A DNA stretch of 43,387 nucleotides from Apiotrichum sp. Y4204 (lineage: Eukaryota > Basidiomycota > Tremellomycetes > Trichosporonales > Trichosporonaceae), in NCBI GenBank assembly GCA_025531455.1, contig JAMYHL010000141.1:1-43387 (forward strand), written 5' to 3'. Under the pieces are notes generated by a model. The model was given only the letters and a program-made list of their open reading frames with translations, did not search any database and was not told where the DNA came from. Positions 23,029 to 42,472 of this stretch are shown here, in pieces (the stretch's first letter is position 1; every line of letters begins with the position of its first letter). The translations under genes were made by a program, and so were the position numbers.

Positions 23029-24174
23029 TCAGTACTTCGTCTTTTTGGCCGTCTTTCTCGTGGCTGTCTTTCTCGTCTTTTTCGTGGCCGTCTTTCTCGT
23101 GGGCTTCCTGGCCGGCTTCTTAGCAACCTTCTTGTTCGGCTTCTTAGTAAGCTTTCTGTTTGGCATCTTGGCGGGCTTCTTGTTTGATTTCGTAGTTGGC
23201 TTTTTCACCTTGCTCTTGGTCTTCTTGGTAACGGGTTTCTTGATCGGCCTCTTCGTCGTCTTTTTGGTCGATTTCGTAGTGGGCTTTGTAGTGATGCCCT
23301 TGGTCGGCTTTTTCTGAGCTGTCTTGGCTGTCTTTCCGGACGGCTTTCTCGCCGGCCTCTTAGTCTTCGTTTTCTTCGTCGTTGCAGTCGATGTCTTGAT
23401 CGGCTTCTTCGTCTTCTTCTTCGTCTTCTTTTTGGTCGGCTTGGTGGTCGTCTTCTTGAGTGGCTTCTTCTTCGTTGTCTTTGTCGATCCCTTGGTCCGG
23501 TTCTTTGTCGATGGCTGTCGTGATGGGACAGCACACGTGGTTCCCCTGCAGGCAATGTTCGGACTCTTTGAGCTCGACGCCTCCTTCTCGACTTTGGACA
23601 TGACCTCCTCACACTTCGCGAACCCTTTGCCTTTGTGCGTAAGCACCGTTATCAGACCCTTTGCGCCATAAACAACACGGTCCGGACCTGGGGACTGAGT
23701 GCCGTCGTATCCGTCCTGACGGATAGGGAATTCTGATGAAATGATGTTTGCCATGCCAGTGAAGCCGGAAAGCCCGTCGTGATTTTTAAAAGTCTTGGGG
23801 TATCCCGGATTTATGACATTGCCCTCCGCATCCTTCACCACACCGATCGGTTTGCTGGTATGCTCTTTCGCCTGGACGACGGCGTCTTTGGCTTCAGCCA
23901 CGGTGTATTCCCTGTTTCCACAGCGATATTTGACAAGGGTTGGCTTGGGGGAGCTGGGCCGGTCGTAAGGCTTGGGTCTGTCGAAAACGTTACTTGGCTT
24001 GGGGGCGGGCTTGGGCCTTGTATCAGGAATTGAGAATCTAATCGGGCCGGGAACGGGTGTGGCCAAGACGAAGGCGGCAAGAAGAAGGGCTGTTAATAAA
24101 TGAAACTGAATAATGTTAGTTGGGTATGCTTCATATGTCGGAGGGTCTGTAATGCTCACGCGGACGGGTAGCAT
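23029..24174 (-). CDS. Secreted T1-type ribonuclease with lysine-rich tail
   Basis: Two exons: ATG at 24174, intron 24159-24106 (GTGAGC donor, AACTAAC branch-like site, TTCAG acceptor), then one exon to 23029, giving 363 residues. Splicing creates a clean signal peptide (MLPVRFHLLTALLLAAF, cleavage near residue 20-23). A Pro-rich linker covers about 23-62. Residues about 63-175 match the guanyl-specific RNase N1/T1/U2 family: YRCG near 65, YP-x-x-F-x-N-x-DG at 107-115, SSEFPI with Glu130, PGPDRVV with Arg148, and THKGKGFAKC with His162. Glu, Arg and His are the expected catalytic residues. The position matching His40 of RNase T1 is Lys109. Residues about 205-363 are a Lys/Thr/Pro/Arg repeat tail (KKPTK-like units), resembling histone H1 tails and unusual for this family. 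The tail could bind nucleic acid, anionic cell surfaces or cell wall. Activity is inferred. Confidence 0.78.
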   Translation of the reverse strand: MLPVRVSITDPPTYEAYPTNIIQFHLLTALLLAAFVLATPVPGPIRFSIPDTRPKPAPKPSNVFDRPKPYDRPSSPKPTLVKYRCGNREYTVAEAKDAVVQAKEHTSKPIGVVKDAEGNVINPGYPKTFKNHDGLSGFTGMANIISSEFPIRQDGYDGTQSPGPDRVVYGAKGLITVLTHKGKGFAKCEEVMSKVEKEASSSKSPNIACRGTTCAVPSRQPSTKNRTKGSTKTTKKKPLKKTTTKPTKKKTKKKTKKPIKTSTATTKKTKTKRPARKPSGKTAKTAQKKPTKGITTKPTTKSTKKTTKRPIKKPVTKKTKSKVKKPTTKSNKKPAKMPNRKLTKKPNKKVAKKPARKPTRKTATKKTRKTATRKTAKKTKY

Positions 24175-24340
24175 GTTGGAACGAGGGAGCTGACCGAACC
24201 CTCGGGGGGGGGGGGGTTGAAGATTCCGGGGAACGAAGATCGAACAGTACTTGTCTGTGTGAAGAGCAACAGTATTTGTCTGTGTGAAGAGCTAGTGTGG
24301 GATTGAGGAGTTGTCCTAACTTTGCGATTGTGCGTCTCTC
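24175..24340. promoter_or_regulatory. Upstream region of RNase gene with poly(G)
   Basis: Short upstream region of the minus-strand RNase gene. It has a 13-G run at 24204-24216 (poly-C on the gene strand) and an imperfect duplication of a CAGTA(C/T)TTGTCTGTGTGAAGAG segment at 24247-24293. No clear TATA box. Confidence 0.5.
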
Positions 24341-24899
24341 TTATAAGCGGTTTCTGGACGACCTGTAGAGTTCCCGGGACAACTCAGCTATGTACTGTTC
24401 TCGCCGATCGAACCCAGTGAATGCATCGGCTGCACGCTGGCAGTCGAGTGGCATCTCAACAGCAACACCCTTCACTCTCACATTTTCACTGCTGTTCAGT
24501 GCAATGCACATTGTGGGCAGTAAGATTGCATGCAGACGATAAGAGATCGTTATGGGTCGCATAGCCTGATGAGAAAGCACAAGTGTTACAGACTCGGCAA
24601 CGGTGCCAGAGGTGAGCAATAGGAGGGGTTCTATTGTTCGATTTCTCGGCCAGCTTGATCTGCATCTATGCATGTATGTGACCTTTTGACACAGGAACGA
24701 CACGTTTACGGCGCACATTGCGCACATTCTGGCATTGTGGTTTGTAGAAATGGAACGCCAGGTCACATATCACGGCGTCTTTCCCCCCGCCTGGGTCATG
24801 AAACATCATCTCCACAACCCAGCCCGCAGATCTACAGACTATGCAATGCAATGTGCGTTGCATTCTCGCCTTCATCGTCACTTCGTATTCCTCACCCAT
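24341..24899 (-). CDS. Hypothetical small protein, uncertain model
   Basis: The minus strand has two protein-like stretches. One begins with an ATG at 24899 (MGEEYEVTMKARMQRTLHC) and is Cys-containing; its frame closes at 24666. The other, ending at 24341 (...DAFTGFDRREQYIAELSREL...), follows a good CATCAG acceptor at about 24568. An intron could connect them, but I could not fix its donor. No domain recognised, no signal peptide. The 3' part looks more genuine than the 5' part. Confidence 0.3.
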
Positions 24900-25523
24900 C
24901 TCCCTGTTCCGCGAGCTTGGTGCACGCCGACGTTATCTCCCATGCAGAGCATGCGATTGTGTATCGAAAAGCTGAATACAGTCCTGTTCAGTCAGGGACA
25001 AGGAAACACCGCCATGTCACCGCCTCCATCCCATCTGCCCTGCTTCAGCCCAATGTTGAAACGCACACTCCAAACCAAGTGATGCACCACATGTGCGTTG
25101 CACCACCAGTATCGTCAACGGTTCAAAGAACAGGCTGCAGTCTATGGCTATTGCATGTGATTTGACTGACCGCGAATCTGCCTTCCCACAGCTGCGGGCT
25201 ACTAGCCTGTTTACTTGAAGCCGTGGAAGGGGATGTGTTTGGAAAACAGACACATGGGACAGAGATGCACTCCTGCACCTTTCTCATGCATGGGGAACCT
25301 CCGCTGCGGTATCGCTCTACCTATCGAAGCTCTGGTGTGTTGCCGAAGTCCGATTCGTCCTGCCCGCCGTCAGTGAACTTTTCTCATGGCGAACGGCGCA
25401 GCATTGGAACGCAGGGCGCGAGTGTCAGCGTCAGATTGATCCACCTGCGCCATGCAACTGGGCTCAAACACCACAAGTAGTCCCCTTCTCATCATACATC
25501 GGAAGCAATACATGGCAGCGCGC
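24900..25523. other. Intergenic, nothing recognised
   Basis: Open frames here are short, overlap on both strands and show no recognisable motif. The 25370-25861 minus frame is a shadow of the membrane-protein gene. Confidence 0.55.
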
Positions 25524-28064
25524 TTAGTCTTCTTCTGGGTCACCTTGGGGAACTCGGGGAAGCGTGGCAGCTGTGTACGCGAACGCGGCAGACATTGCCA
25601 TGTCGAGCAGAACGTTCGGGCCAAGGGCGTCGGGGGCCTTCTGGCCAATGAATGGTGCCGCGTACAAAGCGGCGGAAAGGGGGGCGACCATATACAGGAA
25701 GGCACAAAGAGCGTAGGTGCCAGCGAAGGTAGAAGTGCGCAGATTGACAACTGTTTGCAGAAGCAGATAAGCCCGCTGGGCGCCGCTCTGCATTGCCTCA
25801 AGAATCTCAATGCTGCCTCTTGAATGTGCTGCTGGATGCGCAGCGGGAATGAGAACAACATCGTAATGGATGACAGCCCAGTCGAATGTTGTGAATGCCA
25901 ACCATACCTGCTGTCAGTAGCGCAAGGTCATGTAACGCACGAGAAGGCCGCTTGACCAACCAACGTCGCGGCGGGCTGTCGCTCGCTCTCGGTGGGTCCA
26001 CCGGCGCCTCGCAGGGCTCCACTTCCCGGCCTCGTTGTACAGTCTGACCGGTGACACTGCCAACAGAAGAAACGCGAGCCACGGAATAAATGGGATGGTT
26101 GTCGGTTCCAGGTAGAGGAATGTCCGCCCTTCGGGGTAAAAGAGATCCGAACAAACGACAAGATTGACAACCAGGTGGGCGGCCAGGAGCCACGCGGCGG
26201 GGAGCGAGATGCCTGCAGTAGTTGTGCGGGTATACCAGTAGAGAGTCATGAAGACCAGCGTCCCAATGGAGGCGCACACCCTGGGGTCAACATTCTGTCA
26301 ATGACCCTTCGTAACGTACAGTAAGCCAGAGATGCCAATGAGGAGCCAAGCGTGTAGTCCCTCGGCGGGGCTCCCCAGAACATGTTCTGAAGTCAGCACA
26401 GACGCTATGACTACTCACGCAAGAGATCCGTCATATCCTGCCCTTGAGCAATCTCCCTGGCGGTTCGATAGGGTGGATGGAAGTTGTATGGCCTCAGATC
26501 ATAGATAAGCTCGTGAAAGGGCGACAAGGTTGAGAAGCGCAGCTTCAGCGTCACATTCATGCTTGGTACGTCTGGAGGCGGCTTGTTATCTTGCTGGTCG
26601 GCTGCGACCGGAAGTTTGACAAGATCCTGGGGTGTCAGAGTGTGGTAATGTGGATCATGGTGGCCGGTCAAAATGCACCTGTGGACCAGCAACGTTCAAG
26701 ACGTTGCGTAGAAAGGGTGGGTACGCGGATCGCCCTTTTCCGTGGACGCCATCTCCGTTGAGCAGGTATCGCGCATCCCAGTGACCTCGCTCGAGATACT
26801 TTCTATAGCTCGTCGGACAGAGGAAGAACGACTGCGACTTTATGCTTCTTGTCGAGCGGCACTGTCGGTGAGCAACATCTTGGTTGTAGCTCACGTTTGA
26901 CATTCTGTGCTTGGAAAACATGCCACTAAACTCGCGAGACTTGATCGGCCGCGTCTCATTGACCATTACAACGTGGACCCTGTTATCAGTACGACATCAT
27001 GAGTTCAGCTTACTTGGTCATGATATACGGGTGCAGCGCGGGGCCAGACGAAGCCTTGCGGAGGTTGACACCGACATCCTCCTCACCCCCAGCGCCGTTG
27101 TGCTCGGGTTTGGGGGCTTCATACCCCTGCAGCGTGCGTCCATCCGGAGCCTCGTAGTGGAACTTGATAAGTGGAACCTCAACTGACAACGTTTCTAGGG
27201 CCTGTCTACGTGCTGAGCCGTCTTCGCCAAAGTCACCCGTTGCCTTCAGCCTCGCACATCAGCCTGTGATCACGACGGGGGCGTGTCCACCCATCTGTAC
27301 CCACTTGTCACTCAGAACCTGGCGCAGCTCCAAGCCAGGCGGAAGGGCACGCATTGTCATGTTGACGCGGTCCACCATGGACGGGGAGCGCGGGACAAGG
27401 GTAAGGGTCGCCCGTGCATCAAACATGAGGTTAATGAGCTGTTCTCTGGAACTACATGGCAAGTCAACAATGATCACAGCGGAGAAACTCACAATCGGCG
27501 GAGTGGGAGCTCGAAATTGACGATCGCATCTCTGTGCTTGTTCTGCAGGGTGACGCCGCGCATCACAATGTCCGAGAACACCACCTCCTCCTCGGGCAGG
27601 CGCACGAGTTCAATGAGGGGAATGTCCATCTTTCGCCCTACGGCTGCGAGCAACGTGCGGCGCCCAGGATCAATGTCCTTTCCGTCCCAGTCTTCAGAGT
27701 ACTCGTCGGGCCGCGAAGTTTCGCTGTCTGGCTTCCGCACCCACACCGTCATCGCAACGTCGAACACGGTGTCGTTCCCAATGATGGGCACAGCGCCCTC
27801 GGGGTCGCCGTCAACCGCGATCATGTCATCGAATGGGGAGCGGAGGACCTTCATCCCACCATGGACACTCTTCGCGACAGTCCATGTACCATAACCCAGA
27901 CCTACCGCAACCACCCCCAAGAGACAGTAGCAGCATGCGCGGACAGTCGACCGAGGACGCCGTCTCTGCCGGGGAGCATACAGGACGGGCTGGGATTTGG
28001 GCTCAATACTATCTAGTAGCGGAGAGCGAGCGATGGCGTCGTCTGGGGGATCTGCGCGGCTCAT
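25524..28064 (-). CDS. Multi-pass membrane protein, unknown family
   Basis: Eight exons are proposed: 28064-27493, 27451-27305, 27250-27014, 26979-26679, 26626-26419, 26386-26320, 26280-25941 and 25910-25524. Every junction keeps frame and gives 752 residues. Introns are very short (30-54 nt). One further 36-nt in-frame intron within exon 4 is possible. The N-terminus is basic and cytosol-like, with a membrane segment at about residues 46-64 (CCYCLLGVVAVGLGYGTW). A large, beta-rich, probably extracytoplasmic region of about 400 residues follows, then about five to six C-terminal membrane segments (for example near LHAWLLIGISGLLVCASIGT, SLPAAWLLAAHLVVNLVV, IPFIPWLAFLLLAVS and YALCAFLYMVAPLSAALYAA) and an acidic end. 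The design suggests an endomembrane or plasma-membrane protein. No RING, transporter or enzyme motif was seen. Confidence 0.72.
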
Positions 28065-28445
28065 GTTGACTGGGAGAAAGCGAAAGTGTTAAACGCGAGT
28101 CACACCTTGTCACCATGTTCACAGTGTTGTTCACGGTGGACCTTGTTCGGTGGCGCAGGTACTTTGCGGGAACCGGGTACCTCGCGTGCTGGCGTGAACC
28201 GCGTTTCGTCCTGTGCACCGACACGAAATGTCGTCATTCTTTGTTGCAGGTTTCACAATTTCACATGGTTTAGCCGTCCACGTCGAAGACACGGACGCAA
28301 TGGACAACCATGTTTCTGTGTCACAGAGTGCAGGTCGCAAGGAAACATGAACATTAGGATGATGCATAGATATACCGTTACGAGATCCCAAAAGATATAA
28401 ACCCCCCAAGTCACTCCCTGATCAAGGGCCGGCCTTCCCAGCCAG

Positions 28446-30359
28446 CTAAACATCCTTCACCGCGGCCTGCGCCGCGCAACTTGACTCCCCGGCAACTCTC
28501 GGCGCTGTCGAGGAATTCTGCGCCGCCTCCTGCCCATTGGCCGAACACGCGCTGTGTGCAGTTGTGGTAGTCCCCTCGCTTCCGATCGACGGACCCGCCC
28601 CACACTCTTCATCCCGCGCACGCAGATACGCCTCGAGCTCCTTTGGCGACATGCCCGACTTGGGTCCACTCCTACCCAGCAGTCGGAAAAGCAGCGGATG
28701 TCGGCCAACCCAGATAAACTCGGGAATCAACACGGCCGCAAAAACGCCAAAGGCAATCCAACAGGTGACGCTCCATCCGTTCCGAACGTGGTCGTAGATC
28801 TGACCACCGACAGTGGCGCCGATCGCCGTCGAGACGGCGAACGAGAGGTTGACGGATGCAAACATGTGTAGCTCGCTGATGCCCTCGCGGAACTTTGCTA
28901 CCGTCGCCATCTCAAGGGAAGCAATGGAGGAGACGGTGGTCGCAGCAGTGTTCATCACCGCGAAGAAGAAGATGAACAGCGGAAGACTCTTATCCAGGCT
29001 CATGAGCGGGAGGAACGGGAGCGAGATGACGAGTGCCGGAAAGAGCACGAGCTCTGTACCATACAGGTCCGCGAGCCAGCCAGCAATGGGACCGGCAAAG
29101 AACGCAGGCGACGCAGCGATCAGGTACATGTACCCGACAAAGTCTGCGTCCTTGTTCCATACTTCCTGAACTCGTAGGGCGATTGTCGCGTCGAAGCATC
29201 CGATCACGTAGCCGTAGATGAACACGAGGAAAAAGCCAACAAGACCCCGCGGAAGGGAGGCAAGCGTTGTGAGGACCTTCCAGATGGGCAGCTCGACAGG
29301 TGGTTGCGGATGCGGAAGACCGAGGATTGAGAACTCGTCGTTGGCAGTCGTTGGTGGTCTGTCCTTGTCGTCTTGCGTCTCTTGGGTGTGCTTCTCATCC
29401 ATCGTTGGGACAAGATCGTCATCCGCTGTCACCACCGTTTTGTGGTCGGCCAATTGACAATCCAAGGATTTACTCGGCCTCGCAACGTCGTCTGAGTTTT
29501 GCGCAGACACATCCTGGCCCCCACGGAGTACGGCTGCGGCAAGCTCATCGGAATGCTTGCGCTCGAACCGTTCCCAGTCGCGGCGTTCCAAGATCAGAAA
29601 CCGGCCAAGGAGGTCCACTGCAAGCACGATAATACACAGAACGAAGGGCGCGTGCCATCCGAGGTACTTGTATAGGGCTCCACCGATAGGAGGAGCGATA
29701 GTGATCCCGATCGACAGGCCAGCAGTGCAAAAGCCGAGGTGTTTGCCAAGATGGGCCGGGTCGATATTCTCGCACACGAGCGCCAGGCCGACAGTCCATA
29801 CTACGCAAGAGCACACGCCTTGGAGAAAGCGGGCAATGACCATACACCAATACGGCGGGGCGAGCATGAACAGTACCACCGAGGCCTCCATCGCAATCAC
29901 ACCGACGACGAGCGGACCGCGCCGGAAGGGATAGCGATGAAAGTAGATTGCGATTGGAAACGTGCCAGCACCAACTCCGACAGAATACGCGAAAAGCAGC
30001 CAACCGGTCAACGACGAGATGTTTGTGTATCCAAGATCTTGCAGGCGGTAGGGCAGGACAGGTACGACGATTGAGTAGGTGAGCAAGTCTGCGGCGATGC
30101 CGAGAGTCACTACGCCAGTCATGAAGGCTGAGTGCGATCGCCACTGGTATCGTCAGCACGCGCAATCATATGAGCCCACCTTCCAGCCCCAAGGCATGCG
30201 GAGCCCGTCATCGGCGAGCGCGCGCAGTCGGCGAAGACGCTCGAGCGCGACAAGCACGGGGTCGGTTTCGGTGAACTTGGTGATTACGGAGGCATCGGGG
30301 ACAGGGGCCAGGCCCTGCTCCGCCTGTCCAACATGTGGCGTCGCCGTTGCTTGCGTCAT
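28446..30359 (-). CDS. MFS transporter, DHA1-like
   Basis: Two exons: 30359-30180 and 30143-28446, joined over a 36-nt GT-AG intron, giving 625 residues. The N-terminal 65 residues are cytosolic. Twelve hydrophobic segments follow in two blocks of six, separated by a charged loop at about residues 245-352 rich in Asp/Lys/Thr. Half-two carries the expected loop motif GWLADLYG. Segments such as ARFLQGVCSCVVWTVGLALV and GFCTAGLSIGITIAPPIGGA match the drug:H+ antiporter (DHA1) and vesicular-amine-transporter-like branch of the major facilitator superfamily. It likely exports or compartmentalises small organic molecules using the proton gradient; the substrate cannot be told. The C-terminal 80 residues are Ser/Ala-rich and cytosolic. 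The start at 30359 is the first ATG of the spliced frame with a coding feel. Confidence 0.92.
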
Positions 30360-31394
30360 CAACTTTGTTCCCACTTTGGTGGAGTGCAGGACATGGAGAG
30401 GAGATCCTAAAGAGAATCGTGAAAAGAATGAAAGTATGGAAGATTGTAAGATACCAAGAGATGCAAGACAGCAACGCCCCCGGGGGTGTGCACGACGTCG
30501 CCAGCCCCGACTAAAAAAACGATGGCCCCGGATTTGGCCGACTCGAGAAATTAGCCGATTAGCCTGAACCGGATTAAGACAAGACAAGACTCGACAACTC
30601 TTTCACGATGTGACTGTAGAACACTTCCTCTCCCGGTTCTAATCAGCTGCTCCGTTACTCTCATGCCTGAAGTGGTACGTTCCGTCCATGGACACCGCCG
30701 CCCAACAACACCTGACTGCGAGACTGCGCGCGCACGAAGCTGGAAGGGCCCGTTGTCCATATGAGGTTCATCCACCTGGACTTCTCGGTGATTCTTCCCG
30801 GGTGCCTAGATTGCCGCTGTCGGGTGCTGCCCCCTATAGCTGACAACAGTTAGTGCTTGTGGAAACATGCCGCACTGATAGATATGCTTTCCACCATGCC
30901 CTTCGTTCTGTCTAACCGTCTCCACCCCGCCGCTGGTGAGTCGGTGCGGGATTCGTACACCATGAATGTTGATCTCCACTCGTCTCTGACCATTACACGA
31001 CTGATGGCACAGCGGGCACAAGTTGGCGCGGTACCTTGGCAGCTTTGTACCATTCCCGTCAGAGTCAAGCTCAAGCTTAGCATCATCGGTCCTCACAGTG
31101 GAAGGATCGAGGACTCCATGAGAACAAGGCCGTAAACTTGTCCTATGGGCAGAGTGCGCAATCTCAATGCTTCCTTTATCACAAGTGCTGTCGCAAGTAC
31201 ACTCCGCACTAAGCGCTTTCTACTCACAGCAGTGAAACCGGCTGACAATGAACGAACATCTGAAATACATCTTTCAACTTGTGAAACTGAGAAACGAATC
31301 GGACGAGGCAGTGGGTAGTACAGCTAGTAAAGGACAAGCACTCGTTCCCCACCGAGATGGCCCAGTGGGAGTCACTGAACAGTATGTGAATGCT
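30360..31394. other. Intergenic with one Cys-rich minus ORF
   Basis: Mostly no gene. A minus-strand frame at 31096-30806 encodes 96 residues with a compact Cys/His region (NLCPLCHQSC, then PHR, GHGGKHIYQCG) that could bind zinc. It lacks a family match, and competing frames are open on both strands, so it is noted rather than called. Confidence 0.4.
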
Positions 31395-32319
31395 TCAGCA
31401 CTTGACCGGAAGAGCGGGGCCGGAGCCAGCCTTCCTTGAGAGCGCAAGCTCCTTGTTGCGGCGGTTGACGAGACCTTGAATAACCTCGCCGTGGTTGCCG
31501 TGCACCCACTTGGGAAGCTCCTGCGACAGTACGGTATTGACGTTTTCGCCCGCGTTCAGACGCTTGACGACCTGAGACTGCTTGTTGCAGCCCACGTTGA
31601 ATGCCCAGCTGACCAAAGCCCCGTATTGGTTTTGGTTGAGGACGGCCTTGGGGCCGAGAGCTCCTTTGATACAATTCTGGAACGTCTTGGAAGCGTCAGT
31701 AAGGATGAACGTGGTCGATGCTTACCTTGATCTCTGACATGAAAAGCGCCAGACCATTCGCCTTGCTGAGCGGAATAGGATACTTGACATCCGAGCACCG
31801 CTTGTCCTTGCACAAGTGGCCGTAGCCTACGGTTGGGTGACCGGTCGCATCGGTGTCTGAGTGGGGCTTCAGCGGTAACCCATGCACTTGCGATCAACGT
31901 CACTTACAGATGTTAGAGTACCAACCCTCCCATGAGAGAATAGCATCGACTGTGTCCTTGTTGATTGTCGGAGCGGCGCAGTTACCACCGCCCCCACCGC
32001 CACCACCTCCGCCGCCGCCGCCCCCGCTGCACTTAGTGGTGACATAGCCGTTGACGCCTGTCTTGACGTAGTGGTCGGCGACATAGCAACCATCCTGAGT
32101 CTTGTCCCAGATGCTGTTGCCAGAGACGGTCATCCCGGGGGTCTGGCATGAAAGGGACACCCTGTGGCCTTTGGGATAAACTTTCTTGCTGGGGTAGTTT
32201 GTACCGGGTCCGGACCGACAGTTGACACTGTTCCCGCTGATAGGGTACATCCTGGGAGGCACAGCCGCGAACACCGGTCCCACGGCGGTGGCAAGGACAC
32301 TCAAGATGATGAGCTTCAT
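31395..32319 (-). CDS. Secreted SH3b-GH24 lysozyme (peptidoglycan hydrolase)
   Basis: Three exons, 32319-31908, 31856-31726 and 31676-31395, with 51- and 49-nt GTAAG introns, give 274 residues. Residues 1-18 are a signal peptide. Residues about 24-97 are a bacterial-type SH3 domain (VNCRSGPGTNY, WDKTQDGCYVADHYVKTG), which in bacteria and phages targets cell wall. Residues 99-112 are 14 glycines. Residues about 115-274 are a T4-type GH24 lysozyme domain: SWEGWY with Glu131, YTDATG with Asp140, and HPTVGYGH with Thr146, matching the catalytic Glu/Asp/Thr triad of T4 lysozyme. The C-terminal part (NQNQYGALVSWAFNVGC, WVHGN) is also typical. Even Cys content suggests disulfides suited to secretion. 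It should cleave MurNAc-GlcNAc bonds of bacterial peptidoglycan, which fungi lack, so a role against bacteria and a horizontal origin are inferred. It is divergent from the CHAP gene. Confidence 0.92.
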
Positions 32320-33404
32320 GGCGTTTGTGGAATGCAGTGATAGAGTGAGACAACGGGTTACAGTAGGGGTTGAACAGATCGGGGTGACAAGATACGGATG
32401 TGGAGAAGTTGTCTGCTCTTGTCACGGACATTGCAGCCACTCTTATATCATTTATCGAGCCCCCCATCACTCCCACTCCTCCCCCCTCCGGCTCCCCTAC
32501 TCGCTCCGTTTCCATCTCCGAATCTCCTCCCCAGGCCACTTTCATCTCCCGAGTACGATTATGCGCGGCCTCGTCAGACCGTTCCGGCTGCGGCAAAGTG
32601 GACGGGTTGTCTTGTTTAAAGTTGGTTTCCGCTGGAGTTGAGTCAGATTGGCATAACCTCAAACGCGACTTTGTTCCGTGGGGGATAGCGCAGACGCGCT
32701 CGGTAGCTCGGTACTTTGTTTCAAGGTCACATGCGGCACAAGCCTGTGTGGATACGGCTGTTTCGTGCCACCGTGTCGTTAACGTTAGATATGCATCATG
32801 TGTTCTGCCGTCATGCATGGATTGTGGGTATCCACTATCCATCTTTTAACATGTACCAACGGAAAGAACCGGGTGAAGCGAGCAGACTCCACAGACGGGC
32901 CGACTAGGCGGTGCAAAGGATGGTGTCGCGCGTCGCCACATACCGTTCCACCGGAACCCACCCGGAACCCACCCAACGTGTTTTTCCTTCCCGCCGCGTT
33001 CCGTACCCAAAAAAAGAACTTGGAGTTGCGTTGGAACGCGTCCAAGTCCACATTAGCGCGCGTCAACCACGCCCATCGTCAATTGTTGTATCCCTCCGAC
33101 GGATTCAGCGTTTCCACCTTCGGCCCGCTGACCATAGTCATCACTACATGGGATAACTGAGACCGCACCGCTGCCGCACTACAATGTTCTAAGACTTGCT
33201 GTGCAAAAGGGTATCTTGCAGAATCTCCTCTCAATCGCAAAGGCGAGACTAAGGGCGCCAGTGAGCCATTCAGCATGGGTGTCATGTAGACAACCTTGGA
33301 TGGTATAAAATGACGGAGCTCTGCGCCGTTACTTGCCCTTCGAACAAGCTCCCCCCCCATTCATCATCTCATCTCATTTAGCTCCGGCTTGCCTCACAAC
33401 CATC
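32320..33404. promoter_or_regulatory. Shared divergent promoter region
   Basis: About 1.1 kb separates the two start codons of the head-to-head hydrolase genes. On the minus strand a TATAAGA element (plus 32441-32447) lies about 125 nt upstream of the lysozyme ATG. On the plus strand TATAAAA at 33304-33310 lies about 95 nt before the CHAP ATG, followed by a CT-rich leader. I see no gene between. Co-regulation is possible but not shown. Confidence 0.6.
33304..33310 (+). promoter_or_regulatory. TATA box of CHAP gene
   Basis: TATAAAA about 95 nt upstream of the ATG at 33405, followed by a pyrimidine-rich leader. Confidence 0.65.
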
Positions 33405-34186
33405 ATGAAGTTTACACTCTTCGTCGCTGTTTTCCTCGCTTGGGTGGTCAGTTTCGTAGCCGCCTATCCCATCTCTGGTAACGGCGTAAACTGCCGCACT
33501 GGCCCCGGAACCAACTTTGCCAGTAAGAAGGTATATCCCAAGGGTACCGATGTCAAGATCAGCTGCCAAACGCCTGGCACGAACGTCGAGGGCAACAATA
33601 TCTGGGACAAGACCCAGGACGGCTGCTACGTCGCCGACCACTACGTCAAGACAGGCGTCAACGGCTATGTCACCACCAAGTGCAGCGGCGGCGGCGGCGG
33701 CGGTGGTGGTGGTGGTGGCGGCGGTGGCGGCGGCATCCCCGGACCCGCTAAGAACGACTATCCCTACAGCGGCCGTTGCGGTGGTGTCGACCCGTGGAAC
33801 TTCTACAAGTGCCGTGAGTGCTCCGTGATCTTGCCAGGCGGCGAGGTTCCTTCCCGCTTACCTTTCCAGAGTGCACCTCCTTTGTCGCCTTCCGCATCAA
33901 CAAGCGTCTCGGTATCCATTTCACAAACCAATACAAGAATGTTCACTGGGGCAATGCCTACAACTGGGACAATGCCGCGAGGTCGGCCGGTATTCGGGTC
34001 GACAACAAGCCCGTCCCCGGCTGCATTGCTCAGACCGACTCTGGCCCTGGCCACGTTGCTTGGGTCACCGCTGTCAAGGGCAACAATGTAGTCGTCGAGG
34101 AGTACAACTTCAACACGCGCGAGGGATACGGCACGCGTACCGTTCCCAAGACCAAGTTTGGCAGTTACATCCACATCAAAGTTTGA
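33405..34186 (+). CDS. Secreted SH3b-CHAP peptidoglycan hydrolase
   Basis: Two exons, 33405-33813 and 33870-34186, with a 56-nt GTGAGT...TTCCAG intron, give 241 residues. Residues 1-20 are a signal peptide. Residues about 21-92 are an SH3 domain closely matching that of the lysozyme gene (VNCRTGPGTNF, WDKTQDGCYVADHYVKTG). Residues 95-110 are 16 glycines. Residues about 112-241 form a CHAP domain: QCTSFVAFRINKRLG with nucleophile Cys138 (created across the splice), GPGHVAWVTAV with His198, and VVEEYNFN with the third polar residue around Glu213-Asn216. CHAP enzymes are Cys amidases/endopeptidases that cut peptide parts of peptidoglycan. With the divergent lysozyme, the pair could cut both glycan and peptide of the same polymer. 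Bacterial-type domains in a spliced, secreted fungal gene point to old transfer and adaptation. Confidence 0.92.
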
Positions 34187-35230
34187 TAGCAGTCAAAGGC
34201 TTGCATCGTTGCGTGATAGTCTCAACAATGTACCAGCGCCGAGCGCTTTCCATGTTCATCTGAAAAGGCGTGTGAAGAGTGGGCCTAAACGCCGTCCTGA
34301 GCCAAGGTGTGAATCAGGGTGTCGGTACAATGGGTTCTGGATGTTCTGGAATCCTGGAACGGGGCCTGGGGTCTGCTGGGAACTCGGAACGTGTGTCAGA
34401 TAAGCACCAACGTGCGTACACGTACAGTACGCAGTACGTACACAGGTGGGGGCAAAGTTTGCACCACTTGCCGAATTTACACCGTAGCGCGTCGTTCACC
34501 GCCATCTGCGACCGGCGACGCTGCCTCCCACAGTGCCTCTAGAGTCTTGGGACTTGCTCAGGTGTCGCCTAGAGGGCAATGCTAGCTACTGACAGGTCTC
34601 TTGTATTTTTCTGATTTTTTCCTGATGCATTAAACGGGGTTGGATGTCCTCGACAGGTGCCACACTCAATTTCCTCTGCTCTTGTGCCTGCTGTCCCTGA
34701 ATTTCAACCTCAAGAATGTTGACCACCTCATGCCGCCTACTTAGGATGCATGTTGAAGTGCGATTTTAACAGTGCAGGTAGCTGTATATCTAATGCGTAT
34801 CATACCAAAAAATCAGCACCTGTTTAGAATGAGATTGTTGCAGCAGAGCTTGCCCAGTATCGCTCTCTATGGTGTAAAAAGGTGGGGTGGTGCAATCATT
34901 CCCCCCGCCTCTGTACAGTGCGTGCAGTATATCAGTACGCGTTTGACGAGATCAGGACACACATCTCGACAGTCGAGAGCCCCGTGGCCTTACATACACG
35001 AAAACCCTCCATCAACCGTAGTCTGCAGCTTCCAATGGCTACTGTACCTGACTGACACCGGACCCGGCTCCTGTCAAGCTGTGAGTGCAGTGCAGTACAG
35101 TATCTCAGGGCGGCTCCTGCAAGCCATACAGTACACGGTGCATGCAGTGGGGACGACGGTCAAGTGGCACGAGAAAGCTGGTGCACGCGTTCATTTGCTC
35201 ATCTGCCAAGTATGTAGGCAGCATGTCCAC
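34187..35230. other. Intergenic, nothing recognised
   Basis: Short overlapping frames only. Several GTACGTACAGTACGCAGTACGT-like words near 34410-34440 and scattered CAGTAC words near 34910-35130 form small palindromic clusters. No gene supported. Confidence 0.55.
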
Positions 35231-35962
35231 CTACTGCGCCTTCGGGATCCCCTCGATGATGCCGCCTTCCGCCCGATTACTCTTATTATCGCCTCCCGCT
35301 TCCGTATCGGTGCTGATCTTCGCCTCGTCCTCCCATCGCCCCTTTTCTCGCTCCTCTTGCTCCCTCCATAGCTGTTTAATCTCAGGCAGCATGGGGCCAT
35401 GCGGTTTGTAGGGCGTGGGGTCAGGCAGTTCATTGCCCTGCCCGTCCATGACCCATCGGAATATGCGCCACATCAACCAGGGCATGGAAAAGAACACCCC
35501 GATCTTGTCCCACCACGTCCACTCATACTGGAACATGACGCCCACACGGATGCCTTCGCGGTCGTAAAGAATCCGCTCGCCGGTGATGTCGTGAGTCGGC
35601 CGTGCGTCCTCGTTGCGACCTAAAGTGATCAGCTACTGCCCTAGGTAAGAGTTACAAGTACTGTACTCACTCTCCGGGGGAGGCCCTGTTCGTCCTCTGG
35701 TGACAAAGTCGTAAGCCGTGAATACGTGCATCAGGCCCTTGATCAACCAGATTGTTAACCGCCCCAGCCCAGAGTTCCTTTCCAATTCTTCGAGTGTGGG
35801 CGGGGCCTCAGGATGACGTATATCCTGATCCTGCGTGTTGCGGCTGGTCTCGCTCTGCGACTCGGGTGTAGGATTCGGGAACCTGGAACGATGGACTGCT
35901 GTTGTGTCGTTCATGTTGTGGAGGAAATTGTAGCTTGCAGGGCGTGATATTAGATACTTCAT
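35231..35962 (-). CDS. Small membrane-associated protein, unknown
   Basis: Two exons joined by a 51-nt intron (35670-35620, GTGAGT...TTTAG). Using the ATG at 35962 gives 226 residues; an in-frame ATG at 35914 would give 210. Two hydrophobic stretches are visible: LTIWLIKGLMHVFTAYDFV in exon 1 and IGVFFSMPWLMWRIFRWVM in exon 2, so one or two membrane or amphipathic helices. Between them lies a conserved-looking charged stretch (ITGERILYDREG). The C-terminus is highly charged and helical (LWREQEEREKGRWEDEAKIS). No family recognised. Clean splicing that keeps frame supports a real gene. Confidence 0.6.
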
Positions 35963-36340
35963 TCTGCCCGAGGCCACATTGCGTTCTCCGTTCTTTTAAT
36001 ATCCTTCTGAGGTCCTCTGATGAAGATGTCTCGCATCGCCATCTCTTTTCTGTGCTGCCGATCCCCTTGCGCAATCCTCCTGCCGATCCTCCTGCAGATC
36101 CCCCCTTTCGTTGCCCCCTTGCGCCCATGCCGATCCTGTGACGCATGCGGATCGAGGCGTTCCTGGCGGATCCTGGCGTACCTGGCGCTTGGCCGTCTGG
36201 CGCTTTGGCGCACGGGGACACAGTCTGTCACAATTTAGCTGCTCCCCCCCTCTGTTCCTGCTTCAAAATGACGTCACAGATCTCTCCGCCCCTCGTGCTG
36301 TCGATCCCGCCAATCCCCCCGCCGATCCTCCTATCTTCTA

Positions 36341-36562
36341 CTAGTGCGGGGCTCCACACCCCTCGTCTGTATCATCTGCATTTTCTGCATCTGCGTTGGC
36401 GTGTTTGGGCGCAGAGAGCCAAGCTAGGCAAGACCACACAGCTTTGAGCACTTTTGGCAGCTCTCGTCCAAACTGCAACCGCTTCCACAGCCTCCGCTTC
36501 ACTGCGGTAAACATCGACCACTGCCCCAAGTCAGGTCGCAGCTTGTTGTACCAGAGGGTCAT
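36341..36562 (-). CDS. Possible 73-residue protein
   Basis: Single open frame starting at an ATG at 36562. It begins MTLWYNKLRPDLGQWSMFTA, has a Trp/Leu-rich helix (VLKAVWSCLAWLSA), and ends in an acidic stretch. There is no family match. Its order and orientation (upstream of and same strand as the small membrane protein) would allow a separate gene or a remote first exon; neither is shown. Confidence 0.25.
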   Translation of the reverse strand: MTLWYNKLRPDLGQWSMFTAVKRRLWKRLQFGRELPKVLKAVWSCLAWLSAPKHANADAENADDTDEGCGAPH

Positions 36563-38741
36563 CGCTCAGCAACACAGCTCACTCAGGAACTAAAAATCCG
36601 GCGGAAGCAAATGGTTTGTGACTTGCAACGTGCAGCGTTGCAGTCCTCATACAGTATATACAGTCCTCATATCGGTAGCCTTACCTCTCAGATCAGTGAG
36701 CCAGTGACACTCTCAAGATAGTCATATACCCCGACGCTGTACAGAACTGACTGGTGTGCAGCTGTGTAGACGTGAGTTCGGGCAATTCCACGGGCCGCGG
36801 AGTGACTGGGGCATTTGTCCACTTATATCCGTCCGAAACATTTTCGTCGGCGCCATGGGTCATTTTCGGCATACCGATCTTACGGCCAGACTAGTCCACA
36901 CTACTGTTGTGGTCTGACTTGCTGGGCCCGTGCGACTGCACGTGGTTGTCCGCAAAACTCTCAAGCTCTCAACGGGGTTTTCTCGGACTTTCTCCAAATC
37001 ACACACTTCTTCCACCTCTCGCCACATTGACACCTATGGGTCCTGACCCCAACAGTCCAAAGAATGAAAAGAAGCTCTCCGCCCTGGGGTCCCGATCACC
37101 TTCCATATCGCCCTGTCGGGGTCGGTCCAATCGAGGAGCAGCTTGCAACTCGCGGCGCCTGCCAATAGGACTGATGGGAAGCAAACGGCTCGCAGCTGCC
37201 CATCACCACCACTGGCCGGAAAACGAGGACGCTCCCCCCTTTCCACTCTTGTTACACATGGCTTATCGACTCGGCAACTCATTCTACATCCCTTGAAATG
37301 CCTGCAGTTACTGATGGACGGTTTTTCCGCGTCAGAGCTGGCCCCCAGCTAATTCAGGCGACGTAGTCACCCCACAGCCTGGGCAATTGTGCCTCAGAGC
37401 GTTTCCCAGAGCGGACAGCCCTTGGGGGCAGGCCCCACTCGGAAGCCTCCTCAACTACAGCGCCAAGGAGGCAGGTAGCAGACTGTGTACGACAAACGGG
37501 GTGTGGCCCCATGGCCCCAGTGTTTGTCCATTCGGCGCCGCTCGACTAGTGCCAAGTCGTGGTAAAGTGCTTTGTGGCCCCACGCCGCAATTCGAGAAGT
37601 TCAAGGCCGATTGATCCCCTACAATGTGTCGCAAATCCGGATCCTGATGTAGTTAATGGTTCTCACTATTGCTACTGTTGGACATACTGTAAGCAGTGTA
37701 CTAAACATGTGGATACAAAGAATGCGTGAGCCTTGGCCTCAAACTATTCCCCCGAATTCTCCTTCAAACTCGCCCCACACGCTTCCGGTGCACTTGGCAT
37801 TTGGAACCGGAGCCCTGAGTGCGAATGCTCTCTAACGTTGGTAGGCCAACCCAGCAGATCGCTTTAGCTCTCTTCCGCGGAATGTCCTGTGAACGCGTAG
37901 AATCAACCGCGGTGTAAGGATTCGGAGGCCCGGAATTGACTATTGACTCGTTGCGTGTCCTCGATTCAGCTCGGGCTTTTTGTGTATAAATTTAGTGCGT
38001 TTCTCTGCTCGCGTGTGCCTGGGCGAGGGCTCCACCAGCTCAGGATTACTCTATTCACCGACCCAGATCTCTTGAACAGGGTCTCCCTTTACAAGATCCT
38101 TTTTGTGGGTTCCTGGGATACGATGATCCTGAGCTCTACTTGGCGTGTGGCGTGTGGCGGCATTTGAGCATCGAACAGTAGTAGCATGTCATTGCTGTCT
38201 GATGAGCAAGTTGGCACATGCTGCCGAAAGAGATGTTGCTCTTCGGCAAGGCGGCCTGGGCTCATTCATACGGTCAAGCGCGTAACACAAGGATAGGACC
38301 GCTTTCACAGGTGCAAACGCCTTACCAGCAAACAGGAACTGGTAGGCGGAACCCTTCAACAGCCAAGATGCGATCTGTACGCGATTCACGCCTCAACAGT
38401 GGGTTCGGCGTTCCCCCATCTCGGACCAACACGAACTGAAGGGGGGAAGGGCACCAGATGTGGGTGTGTATTGATGGCGCTGGTACTGTTAGCAAGGTAC
38501 GCATTGATTCTTGAACCTGACCGACTGGTGTACATGGCGTTCATCTGGCACTGCTGTTTCTCAGGCAGGTGGGACTGGGGTCGTACCCTCAGACCCAGAG
38601 CTCTGTTGTCGTTACTGATTCCTCTGCCACACTGACTGGAGAACCCGACGGAACCAGCCATGTTTGTTGACCTGTCTTGCTTTCGGTTGTACTGGGGTTG
38701 TGCTGCCTGCGCAAGCGGTCCGTCACCCCACCCCGCAAGTA

Positions 38742-38747
38742 TATAAA
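38742..38747 (+). promoter_or_regulatory. TATA box of WSC/PriA-like gene
   Basis: TATAAA 60 nt upstream of the ATG at 38807, a spacing compatible with a short leader. Confidence 0.7.
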
Positions 38748-38806
38748 GACCCCGGAGCTGGACTGGGAGGTGTGATCAGACCCAAACACGAACCAACATC
38801 CCGGAA

Positions 38807-40066
38807 ATGAAAGTCACCGCCATCTTCCTCCTCCTCGCCTCCTTGGTCTCGCAGACCATGGCCGCTGGAGTGTTCGTTCAGTGTGCCGATGGTGGAAGCC
38901 TTGTGTGAGTCCGAAATGATGATAGTTGCCGTCCACTAACAGTCTCCAGCTCAAATGTCCTCGACACTCTCGGTACTCTTGTGGGGAACGTGCTTCTCGG
39001 GCAATGCGAGGTGAGTAATGCCAGTGGCACACCTTGTTACTGTAGACACTACTGACATACGAAAGACTATGTGCCAGAATGGTAACTACGACTACACCCT
39101 CTGGTCTCCGGCGCTGTCAGTTCTGGGTATCAACCTGCTGAACATGTGCTACTGTGTCAACGCAAACAAGTGGAAGCCTGGCCCTCAGTACAACGATGTT
39201 GGTAAGTAGCAAATGCCGGTTCGGCCAGTCCATGCTCACAACCAGCCACCTCTGGAAACACTTGCCACAAGGGTGGCCTCCTTGGCGTCAGCGTGATCAA
39301 ACCCGACTGGCGGGTGACGTGGAACAAGGCCGGTAACTGGCAGTACTCCACCTGCTTGACTGGCGCCACTCTCACTGGTGGAATGACAACCACCGTGACC
39401 GACTCGGAGCAGTGCTTCAACGCGTGCAAGCTGTACAAGTACGCCGCCCTTACTTTCAACGGCGGTTCAATGGGCTGCACCTGTGGAACTGTTCTCTCCG
39501 GCGGTACCGCTACCAAGTGCGGCGATGCCGGGACCTGGTCGAATGGCGCGGCTCGCAAGCGCGCTCTCGGCACCGGAGCATCGACATTCTTCCTCAACGC
39601 GGCCCCCGAGATCTCCGCCGCTCCCGGTGCCAGGAGGGCCCTCCAGGAGCAGCTTCGTGCCGAGGCCGACGCCCGCGACTATGCCTACTGCCCCCGCGGT
39701 TTGGTCGGTTGCCTCATCCCGGGATCAGCCCAGTACGAGTGCATTGACCCGCAAGCTGAGCTCGGTAGGTTCCCATCACGGTTCAGCGAAACAGCCACTA
39801 ACACCTTCACAGAGTCCTGCGGCGGTTGCTCAAACGGGTACTACGGGGGAGTTAATGCCACCACTGGTGTTGAGTAAGTCATCCCCCCACAGCTCTCCAT
39901 TACAACCATAAGTCTGACTTGCAGTTGCACCACGCTCCCTGGCGTTGCTGTCGGCGGTGTCTCATGCCATCAAGGCCAGTGCATGGTCTCAAAGTGCGCT
40001 CCCGGATGGGTCCTTGACAACAAGGTTTGTGTCCGCAAGGACACTCGCGCCCGCCGGAGCTTCTAG
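38807..40066 (+). CDS. Secreted WSC/PriA-like cysteine-rich protein
   Basis: Six exons, 38807-38904, 38950-39010, 39066-39201, 39246-39764, 39813-39873 and 39925-40066, with introns of 44-55 nt; lengths sum to exactly 338 residues plus stop. Residues 1-19 are a signal peptide. The N-terminal half has Cys patterns of a WSC-type carbohydrate-binding module (SEQCFNACKLYKYAALTFNG, then MGCTCGTVL). The C-terminal third (YCPRGLVGCLIPG, YECIDPQAELESCGGC, CTTLPGV, VSCHQGQCMVSKCAPGWVL) matches the conserved Cys-rich domain of basidiomycete PriA-like proteins, which are developmentally expressed and of unknown biochemical role. Likely secreted or wall-bound and disulfide-rich. A basic linker (AARKRAL, GARRALQ) may be a processing site. 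Confidence 0.82.
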
Positions 40067-41594
40067 AAAACAGACTACGGACATTACCATTTCGGTTTAC
40101 CACTATTATAACTTACGATGCATGGGGGAAGTAAGGGCTATTGGCCCTTGAGGGGCAGGGCGGAGGATGTAGGGGCACAGCTGCAGTAGATAGAAGGAGC
40201 TGTGAGTGGATCGTTGTGCAACGTTGCAAAACGTCCAATGGCCGAAACGCAGCAACGGTGATGGCATGGCGAATGAATGGGTGTAATCGATCAAGGTTTT
40301 CCTGGCGCCCCATTCTCATTCCAGTGATGCGTGGGACCCACACCCTCTGGTCTCTGGTACAGTACCACTGCTCGGGGGATTAGTGGCTTTAGTGGCGCCC
40401 TCTAATGGCTGTTCCAGTCAAACTCTATCTGACATTCAGCGGGGCGAGGCTTGATCGATGCGGAGACAGCCAGTGCGCCGTTGTGGCGTTTGCCAGAGCC
40501 GACGGCCCCGAGGGCCGGAGTGGGCCGAGCCGTGCCGAAGGGCCGGAGGAGGCGTTGAATTGCACAAGCCGATGGTGGCTTTTATTACTACTCTCTGCAC
40601 AGTTCAACCACAACACAAGTGAAACAGGTTCCCAGTCGGCGTGCACCACATGGCAAGAGGCGACACCCTTCGTCCAACAGAGAGCCACCATTCTCCCCAG
40701 TTGGCCAGATGTACAAACAGGGTCCACCACGATGGCCAGACATGAGCGGTCAAGGAGATTGTAGGGAAAAGCCAACATGCGGGGCTACCTACCGACAGTC
40801 GATATATCGATACACAGCAAGCAAGAGTAGCCCAGATCTGCTAGCTGCTGGTGTGATTTGTTCAGCAGGGGGCACGCAAGGTGACACAGCCCTGGGCAAG
40901 AGCAAAATCCTGGCAGCATGCTTTTGAATTACTGCAAGCCGAAAGCTAAAGAGATGAATAACAATGCCCTGAATAAGGATGCATATCATCATTACTAGGT
41001 GCTTTCTTCGACTTGCATGACCTGGGGGATCACGTCGGCTTGAATTCTGGGTGTCAGGAAGGGTTGGTAGTAAGACGTGTCGACGCAGGCGAAGAACGTG
41101 GAGGCGAAAAACGCGAGGATCCGGACGGATCATACTAGGCCCACATTGAGATCTGATGGACTCGAGCAACAAAAGGTACTTCTTGGAGCGCATTGGTGGG
41201 CATAAGACGCTCTCGACTCTAGAGAACGAGGGCGATCAACAGTCGGCTTGCAACTCCATTGCTTGTGCAATAGGAGCAGGCCGACGTGCCGGGATATAAT
41301 ATCACTGGAGGCTACGGCGCTGCTGTCGTTGATCGCTGTTTAGCAACACAGGGCTCGGCAGGCAGCTGATGCCGCACACCAGGACGGGCGGCGTTGCACC
41401 TGTCCGTCGTCATCGAGCGGCCATTACGAGTCAGATGAGTCATTATCTGTGCATTCCTTGCGCCCATTTGCATGGGAACGTGTGTCTTGGTTTGCAAGCA
41501 TTGTCGTCCTGGAGATCATCAGTAGCGGCCACGGTTGAACGAGATGCTTGCATGGCTCAACCTTACAATACTTCATGCCTCTCGATGCCTGTAG
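40067..41594. other. Intergenic, nothing recognised
   Basis: 1.5 kb without a convincing gene. Short frames on both strands have no motif. The sequence directly before 41595 reads CTGTAG|ATG, so a non-coding or short first exon of the proton-channel gene could lie here. Confidence 0.5.
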
Positions 41595-42472
41595 ATGCTC
41601 CAAGTCCCCGAAGGCTGGAAGGACATCGCGTTGGCGCGCAGCCGAGTGCGCAAGGTTCTTGACCATAGGCTGTTCCAACGTGCACTCGTGTTCCTTGTGA
41701 GTATCCCGCGAGTACAAAATCCCACTATAAGAACGCTCGCTGATCAGTGTAGATAATAGTCGATGAAGTAGCTGTGCTCACCATCCTGAGCTATCGTGAG
41801 CACGGGGAGATTGTGAGTGAAGGGCCAACATCCCAGACGTGCTGCACTGCCACGAGGATCCCCACTGGTTTGACCCACTTGGCTATCTCTCTCTCGCACT
41901 CAACCTCCTCTTTCTGTTCGAGATCCCTGCGGCACTATTCGGCTTTGGGCTAGCATACTATGGCATAGCACGACCAAGGGCTCAGAGTAAGGACCCGCAC
42001 GAGACCGGCAGATGCCTACCACAGTGTTCCTCTTCCACCTCTTCGATGCTGTGATCATGGTTGTCACAGTCGTACTCGAATTCGTCCTCCATGGGCGGGA
42101 AGAGGAGCTTGTGGGTTTGATTGTTCTTCTACGTCTCTGGCGCATTAATCAAGTATTCGGCACGGCTCAAGGAGTGCGCCAGCGGAAACGGCTACGGCAA
42201 AGTGAAATCGGTAAGAACAGTCCCGGGGTCTGGCCTTGACCAGCTTAGCGGCGCTAGCTCCGAATGAATGGAACGCGGGCATTGTTGACGAACGCGACAG
42301 CACTTCTGTAGAGATTGAACGACTTCGACAAGAGAACGAGGCACTACGTCAAAGACTAGCTCATCTCGGGGTGGAGGTCACGTCGGAAGGGCGCTCGGCA
42401 TCAGTCGACGATACGCTATCGGCTGTCAGCAGCACGGAATCGAGCCCCGGTTCAGCTGGTTCAGGGCGGTAA
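41595..42472 (+). CDS. Voltage-gated proton channel (Hv1 type)
   Basis: Five exons, 41595-41696, 41753-41795, 41837-41986, 42025-42210 and 42249-42472, with introns of 38-56 nt, sum to exactly 234 residues. Four membrane segments match the Hv1 voltage-sensor fold. S1 has the selectivity-filter aspartate (IIVDEVAVL, Asp38). S2 has LNLLFLFEIPAALFGFG (Glu77). S3 has HLFDAVIMVVTVVLEFVL (Asp106, Glu117). S4 has GLIVLLRLWRINQ with Arg135 and Arg138. The position of the third S4 arginine is Gln141. His residues in the S1-S2 region (about 49-58) and His121 could bind Zn2+, as in animal Hv1. Residues 181-204 (VEIERLRQENEALRQRL) are a leucine-type coiled coil, as used for dimerisation. The protein lacks a pore domain. 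It should conduct H+ outward across the plasma membrane. The start could lie in an additional upstream exon. Confidence 0.86.

What the first reader, a model, noticed from the sequence alone, without database searches (positions are those of the whole stretch)
31395..34186. Head-to-head pair of modular antibacterial-type enzymes in a fungus
Two divergent, intron-bearing, secreted genes share signal peptide + bacterial-type SH3 domain + poly-Gly linker (14 and 16 Gly), then switch to two unrelated peptidoglycan hydrolase folds (GH24 lysozyme with Glu131/Asp140/Thr146; CHAP with Cys138/His198). Fungi lack peptidoglycan, so the natural target would be bacteria. One cuts glycan strands and the other peptide bonds: a two-enzyme, jointly controlled wall-breaking locus. 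Domain identities are read from the sequence; the joint role and transfer are inferred.
Basis: partly seen in the sequence, partly recalled or inferred. Interest (0 to 1): 0.92.

Follow-up and report, generated by a model that had tools for sequence, protein, structure and literature searches.

The report
Paired fungal bacteria-cutting enzymes, shared tag
Two fungal genes that stand head to head carry the same kind of wall-binding module joined to two different enzyme domains that would cut bacterial cell walls, and across 17 such gene pairs the modules of partners resemble each other more than shuffled partners do, most likely because one gene is copied over the other, which would keep both enzymes aimed at the same target.

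Summary
Gene A (31395-32319, minus) encodes signal peptide, SH3-like domain, Gly14 and GH24 lysozyme; gene B (33405-34186, plus) encodes signal peptide, SH3-like domain, Gly16 and CHAP. A is a full-length relative of a solved, active fungal muramidase (8b2s); B belongs to a widespread fungal SH3-CHAP family. The antibacterial reading rests on characterised relatives; activity here is untested. Beyond the finding: (1) the pairing is old. This genome looks doubled and both copies keep the head-to-head pair; A and B relatives share a contig in 15 of 17 name groups outside Kickxellomycotina and in 4 of 11 inside, some with consecutive locus tags. (2) In 17 ascomycete pairs the SH3 of A is 82% identical to its partner's SH3 against 72% for shuffled partners (0 of 20,000 shuffles), and follows it (r 0.73) rather than its own GH24 (r 0.15). 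In the window, silent differences between A and B drop from 31 of 36 to 1 of 13 sites within the SH3: a gene-conversion tract. The single enzymes are known kinds; ten paper searches did not show the pair or its homogenised module. Orientation elsewhere and co-expression are untested.

The parts
31395..32319 (-). Gene A, SH3-GH24, 277 aa; exons 32319-31908, 31856-31726, 31685-31395
32248..32319 (-). Predicted signal peptide of A (residues 1-24)
   Evidence: 8b2s chain begins opposite residue 25; no signal-peptide program run
32029..32247 (-). SH3-like wall-binding domain of A (residues 25-97)
31984..32025 (-). Gly14 linker of A (residues 99-112)
31449..31935 (-). GH24 domain of A (residues 129-260, introns included); Glu131, Asp140, Thr146
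33405..34186 (+). Gene B, SH3-CHAP, 241 aa; exons 33405-33813 and 33870-34186
33405..33464 (+). Predicted signal peptide of B (residues 1-20)
   Evidence: 8b2h chain begins opposite residue 21; no signal-peptide program run
33465..33683 (+). SH3-like wall-binding domain of B (residues 21-93)
33687..33734 (+). Gly16 linker of B (residues 95-110)
33795..34108 (+). CHAP domain of B (residues 131-216, intron included); Cys138, His198, and invariant Glu214 and Asn216
32320..33404 (.). Divergent intergenic region, 1085 bp; TATA-like sites at 33304 (+) and 32448 (-); 90.4% identical to the C165 copy
32029..32082 (-). A side of the putative gene-conversion tract (SH3 codons 56-73)
33630..33683 (+). 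B side of the putative gene-conversion tract (SH3 codons 56-73)
31985..32148 (-). Arm 1 of a 164-nt inverted repeat, 88% complementary to 33564-33727
33564..33727 (+). Arm 2 of the same inverted repeat

Best explanation
The locus holds two divergent genes whose proteins share one SH3-like wall-binding domain and differ in their catalytic domain (GH24 in one, CHAP in the other); they are predicted to be secreted and likely act together to lyse competing bacteria, one cutting glycan strands and the other stem or cross-link peptides. The SH3-like domain would anchor both enzymes on peptidoglycan, as published for the T. saccata relative, and the flexible Gly linker would let the catalytic domain reach its bond (inferred). 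The pair has stayed linked for a long time (contig sharing in other fungi; two head-to-head copies in this genome). Its targeting modules are homogenised, most likely by gene conversion (identity, distance and silent-site tests), which would keep both enzymes aimed at the same wall feature (inferred). Joint induction by bacteria is predicted, not shown.
Against: No activity, secretion or expression was measured for either gene. Strand order in other species is unknown; on megabase contigs the distance is unknown. Own is the best partner in only 11 of 17 pairs, and Rhypophila (60%), Podospora didyma (64%), P. australis (68%) and Apodospora (70%) show none of the excess. Four linked Kickxellomycotina pairs show no effect (p 0.25). 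Three Coemansia pairs listed on different contigs are 92-96% identical, so linkage is not shown to be required. The GH24 genes of Coemansia and of the main ascomycete clade lie in different parts of the tree.
Confidence: 0.68

Rival explanations
1. Two ordinary digestive enzymes: the fungus feeds on dead bacteria, and the two genes stand together by descent from a local duplication of the SH3 module, without joint control.
For: The genome encodes further SH3-GH24, SH3-NlpC/P60 and GH24 enzymes elsewhere, so the pair is not needed for wall digestion; the intergenic region is 1085 bp with one TATA-like site per gene.
Against: Linkage in distant fungi is more than a chance neighbourhood would give; the related CwhA and C. 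cinerea GH24 genes are induced by bacteria. It is not exclusive of the main reading, since killing and feeding can go together.
Confidence: 0.22
2. The likeness of the paired SH3 domains comes from selection for the same target in each species (convergence), or from repeated re-fusion of one SH3 source, and not from gene conversion.
For: It would explain protein likeness in pairs on different contigs (Coemansia 92-96%).
Against: In the window silent sites are nearly identical in the tract and saturated beside it (Fisher 7.6e-7); identical T. fergusii modules over 73 residues; the SH3 of the NlpC/P60 enzyme in the same species shows no effect; no intron lies at the module edges of these genes.
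Confidence: 0.15
3. The enzymes act on the fungus's own wall, for instance on chitin.
For: GH24 belongs to the wider lysozyme/chitinase group, and many secreted fungal hydrolases remodel the own wall (recalled).
Against: The T. saccata module bound Micrococcus cells and not Avicel, and its enzyme is a muramidase (PMC10394673; chitin was not in what I read); closest structures of the CHAP domain are bacterial and phage wall enzymes.
Confidence: 0.04

Closest known systems
SH3-GH24 muramidase of Trichophaea saccata (PDB 8b2s; PMC10394673)
   Same: Same order of domains and full-length similarity to A (E 2.7e-73); same four Cys in the SH3-like domain; catalytic Glu conserved.
   Different: Short Ser/Gly linker in T. 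saccata against Gly14 here; the sections and passages that I read say nothing of a CHAP neighbour ('chap' 0 occurrences).
Fungal SH3-CHAP proteins annotated as 'CHAP domain-containing' or 'Peptidase C51 domain-containing'
   Same: B is a full-length member (for example 70% to Chaetomium fimeti).
   Different: None found characterised in ten paper searches; the 'amidase' fused to this module in Figure 5 of PMC10394673 (legend) might be this kind. The Gly run here is longer than in any of the 120 listed relatives (16 against at most 10).
CwhA of Aspergillus fumigatus, SH3-NlpC/P60 (PMC12332128)
   Same: Secreted fungal peptidoglycan hydrolase with an SH3 domain; the window's genome has a relative of this architecture (C141 and C108).
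   Different: Other catalytic family and, as far as listed contigs show, not linked to the A-B pair.
Trichomonas NlpC/P60 hydrolases with complementary activities (PMC10461829 abstract)
   Same: A eukaryote with bacterial-type wall hydrolases of complementary activity against bacteria.
   Different: One catalytic family, protist, no gene pair with a homogenised module in the abstract.
Bacterial and phage CHAP enzymes (5t1q, PcsB 4cgk, LysK 4csh)
   Different: Other binding domains; the nearest bacterial CHAP found (55%) heads a long repeat protein.

Membership tests
GH24 lysozymes with SH3-like CWBD | GH24 domain over the curated cut-off | tested here: met
   PF00959 116.4 bits, cut-off 22.3
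GH24 lysozymes with SH3-like CWBD | Catalytic Glu, with Asp and Thr | tested here: met
   Glu131 invariant, Asp140 and Thr146 at least 90% in 60 sequences; their roles are recalled from T4 lysozyme
GH24 lysozymes with SH3-like CWBD | N-terminal SH3-like domain with two disulfides (four Cys) | tested here: met
   Cys34, 58, 78, 97 invariant in 60 sequences; full-length match to 8b2s
GH24 lysozymes with SH3-like CWBD | Muramidase activity | not testable with these tools
   needs an assay
CHAP (PF05257) | CHAP domain over the curated cut-off | tested here: met
   57.7 bits, cut-off 26
CHAP (PF05257) | Catalytic Cys and His and a polar third residue | tested here: met
   Cys138 invariant, His198 at least 90%, Glu214 and Asn216 invariant in 58 sequences; which is the third residue was not measured, as coordinates of the model were not at hand
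CHAP (PF05257) | CHAP fold | tested here: met
Bacterial SH3 domain PF08239 | Match over the curated cut-off | tested here: not met
   17.8 bits against 27 in A; no row for B
GH184 muramidases | Catalytic domain of GH184 | tested here: inconclusive
   B matches 8b2h only over residues 21-113, the SH3 and linker; that 8b2h is a GH184 chain is my inference from the paper
Conserved divergent gene pair | A and B on one contig in other species | tested here: met
   15 of 17 and 4 of 11 name groups, from equal contig length and organism
Conserved divergent gene pair | Head-to-head order in other species | not testable with these tools
   no fungal contig could be fetched; only the C165 copy in the same genome was seen, head to head
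Conserved divergent gene pair | Joint expression | not testable with these tools
   no expression data

The most novel reading that the evidence does not exclude
Fungi keep a two-gene antibacterial cassette, GH24 plus CHAP, whose targeting module is a shared cartridge: recurrent gene conversion between the paired genes rewrites both SH3 modules together, so that both blades are re-aimed at a new bacterial wall in one step, and the cassette has been kept, rebuilt or passed on between Ascomycota and Kickxellomycotina.
Probability: 0.33. Interest if true: 0.8.

Novelty: new variant of a known kind. Interest (0 to 1): 0.63.

Why it matters
Fungal antibacterial wall enzymes are described one at a time in the papers that I saw. 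A linked pair with two different cutting domains and one co-evolving targeting module would show that fungi field such enzymes as a set, and it is a natural experiment on swapping targeting modules between enzymes. It can be tested directly: are the two enzymes synergistic, are they induced together, and does module identity follow the bacteria that each fungus meets?

Tried and rejected
Viral contigs for relatives of B: 32 pattern matches, none a relative. Phage and plasmid CHAPs: at most 38.9% and 43.8% identical among the 20 rows listed for each, so no near donor was seen there. Bacterial and archaeal genome contigs: 34 pattern matches, one relative, a CHAP in an Erysipelotrichaceae MAG. 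Transfer of the pair as one unit between Ascomycota and Kickxellomycotina: not shown; in the GH24 tree the main ascomycete clade stands apart from Coemansia, while Trichoderma and Metarhizium fall among Coemansia (p-AU 0.0147 for one Kickxellomycotina clade), and the CHAP tree is unresolved (p-AU 0.457). Linkage as a need for homogenisation: not shown. SH3 tree: 73 columns, 22 of 43 inner branches open; A and B do not separate. Exon shuffling: no intron lies at the module edges of these two genes. A first pattern for linkers in relatives matched nothing. VIA-align note: families absent from its list are not excluded. The organism was not identified; the doubled genome made me think of known hybrid fungi, but nothing was tested.

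Rows dropped: one search used 96 of the 120 listed B rows and 91 of the 120 listed A rows. The 24 B rows left out were unnamed. The 29 A rows left out were unnamed, or named without a contig or partial or weak (P0121, P0200, P0201, P0203, P0227, P0232, P0233, P0234, P0235, P0237). The searches listed the best 120 of 254, of 450 and of 172. In one search Pseudogymnoascus strains were lumped into one name, which is one of the two groups without a shared contig (the other is Cladorrhinum sp. PSN332). The 17 pairs include the window pair and one unnamed metagenome pair that I counted as ascomycete; the C165 pair was left out so as not to count this locus twice. Only P0221/P0077 of the Linderina and P0180/P0074 of the C. 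spiralis combinations were used.

Full report
WHAT IS THERE. The window lies in a fungal genome of 48.9 Mb in 182 contigs. Gene A on the minus strand (31395-32319) and gene B on the plus strand (33405-34186) stand head to head with 1085 bp between the start codons. With introns of 51 and 40 bp (A) and 56 bp (B) they read as 277 and 241 aa (gene models are mine). A is predicted signal peptide, SH3-like domain, 14 Gly, GH24; B is predicted signal peptide, SH3-like domain, 16 Gly, CHAP. Pfam gives PF00959 at 1.3e-33 and PF05257 at 1.7e-15.

A GENOME THAT LOOKS DOUBLED, WITH A WALL-BREAKING SET. The SH3 matches fall into nine twin pairs on different contigs (18 matches), the GH24 matches into five (10 matches), and the large RNA polymerase subunit family into three (12 matches on six contigs), so the genome looks doubled, by hybridisation or duplication. 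Contig C165 matches the window from 24415 to 42661 in blocks of 84-91% identity, with A and B again head to head, 1103 bp apart. Between the copies protein changes are rare against silent ones (GH24 dN 0.011, dS 0.146; CHAP 0.010, 0.167; SH3 of A 0.027, 0.280; SH3 of B 0.046, 0.171), which indicates purifying selection. Besides the pair the genome has two more SH3-GH24 enzymes, one SH3-NlpC/P60 enzyme, one GH24 without SH3, one GH24 with PF01471 peptidoglycan-binding repeats, and four further SH3-like loci without a catalytic domain in the open frame, each in two copies (three of the four SH3-only kinds were scanned in Pfam, without a hit; introns were not modelled there).

THE PAIR IS OLD. 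The SH3-CHAP family (254 hits, 120 listed) and the SH3-GH24 family (450 hits, 120 listed) include named Sordariomycetes, Leotiomycetes, Pezizomycetes, Kickxellomycotina and Mucoromycota (classes recalled from the names). Equal contig length and organism show A and B relatives on one contig 20 times among 91 A and 96 B rows. Of name groups with both listed, 15 of 17 outside Kickxellomycotina and 4 of 11 Kickxellomycotina share a contig. The tightest cases are Coemansia furcata (H4S07_003179 and _003180 on 4877 bp), an unnamed metagenome contig of 15.6 kb, Humicola (21 kb), and consecutive tags in Thermocarpiscus, T. fergusii and Monosporascus. Seven of the others are known only to share a megabase contig. 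Strand could not be read.

THE TARGETING MODULE IS HOMOGENISED. Across 17 ascomycete pairs (window and one unnamed pair included) the SH3 of A is on average 82.0% identical to the SH3 of its partner B, but 72.0% (sd 1.1) with shuffled partners; none of 20,000 shuffles reached the observed value; the partner is the best B in 11 of 17. Without the window and the unnamed pair the figures are 81.6 and 71.6 (15 pairs). In T. fergusii the two modules are identical over 73 residues. SH3(A) distances follow SH3(B) distances (r 0.73, p 0.0002) and not those of the GH24 domain in the same protein (r 0.15, p 0.22); SH3(B) follows its CHAP (r 0.55, p 0.0008); GH24 and CHAP follow each other (r 0.45, p 0.010; with Kickxellomycotina r 0.53, p 0.0004). 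As a control, the SH3 of the NlpC/P60 enzyme in seven species shows no own-species excess to A (64.1 against 64.1, p 0.45) or B (64.8 against 64.6, p 0.44), while A-B in the same seven does (87.7 against 74.4, p 0.0002). That control domain is more diverged, which lowers its power. In the window, A and B differ at 30.9 of 36.0 silent sites in SH3 codons 1-55 but at 1.0 of 12.7 in codons 56-73 (Fisher on rounded counts 7.6e-7), and the last 54 bp hold no site that separates both A copies from both B copies (permutation p 0.00035). There, at five sites, B of C48 agrees with both A copies where B of C165 differs, so the last event probably ran from A to B in this copy. C165 has its own weaker break (29.7 of 36.2 against 2.3 of 12.3). 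A 164-nt inverted repeat, 88% complementary, spans the region.

AGAINST A SIMPLE RULE. Rhypophila (60%), Podospora didyma (64%), P. australis (68%) and Apodospora (70%) show no excess; four linked Kickxellomycotina pairs show none (58.8 against 57.6, p 0.25); in Dactylonectria an A on another contig is as close (75%) as the linked one (74%); and three Coemansia A-B pairs listed on separate contigs of 2.7-61 kb are 92-96% identical, which may be broken assemblies or homogenisation without linkage.

HOW IT LIKELY WORKS. Published relatives supply the mechanism. In PMC10394673 (section 3, part 1 of 2, sections 2.2 and 3.5, and passages) the SH3-like domain binds Micrococcus cells but not Avicel, and its removal lowers activity. 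In PMC12332128 (abstract and passages) CwhA, an SH3-NlpC/P60 enzyme, cleaves stem peptides, lyses Gram-positive bacteria and is induced by them. In PMC4704728 (passages) GH24 genes of C. cinerea respond to B. subtilis, and one only to a nematode. By inference A cuts glycan strands and B an amide or peptide bond, both held by the same module, and together they would break walls faster than either alone; homogenised modules would keep both on one target. Synergy, target and joint induction are inferred.

ORIGIN. Bacterial CHAP relatives: 43.8% in a Streptococcus salivarius plasmid, at most 38.9% in the phage rows listed, and 55% in an Erysipelotrichaceae MAG, where the domain heads a long repeat protein. 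A bacterial source is plausible but undated. In the GH24 tree Trichoderma and Metarhizium fall among Coemansia (97/97), which points to exchange between fungal phyla; the CHAP tree does not resolve the matter.

NOVELTY. Ten paper searches listed no paper that I recognised, from titles and starts of abstracts, as treating a fungal SH3-CHAP enzyme, the linked pair or homogenised SH3 modules. The library holds open-licence PMC papers only, and the legend of Figure 5 in PMC10394673 names C40, M23, GH73 and an 'amidase' as partners of this module; the amidase might be CHAP. So the single enzymes are members of known kinds; the conserved pair with a co-evolving module is the new part.

Noticed in passing
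G000; window 24415-42661 against C165: The genome looks doubled: SH3, GH24 and RNA polymerase genes come in twins on different contigs, and the window's right part has a counterpart at 84-91% identity.
   Followed up: partly
window 23032-24291 (-): Open frame with a hydrophobic N-terminal stretch, a microbial ribonuclease domain (PF00545, E 8e-9) and a long Lys/Thr-rich basic tail.
   Followed up: no
window 28449-30152 (-): Major-facilitator transporter (PF07690, E 1.4e-45) next to gene A.
   Followed up: no
G000 C141 and C108 (L031, L032): SH3-NlpC/P60 enzyme like CwhA of A. fumigatus, in two copies; 172 relatives, among the 120 listed mostly fungal names plus some bacteria such as Nakamurella.
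   Followed up: partly
window 31984-32025 and 33687-33734: The Gly runs of both genes (14 and 16) are longer than in any of the 120 listed relatives of each (at most 10); the C165 copies have 14 and 14.
   Followed up: partly
L054 82-3555 (+): Erysipelotrichaceae MAG with an N-terminal CHAP 55% identical to the fungal one, in a long repeat protein.
   Followed up: partly
GH24 relatives of Trichoderma (P0187) and Metarhizium (P0188): They fall among Coemansia in the GH24 tree (97/97), a hint of exchange between fungal phyla.
   Followed up: partly
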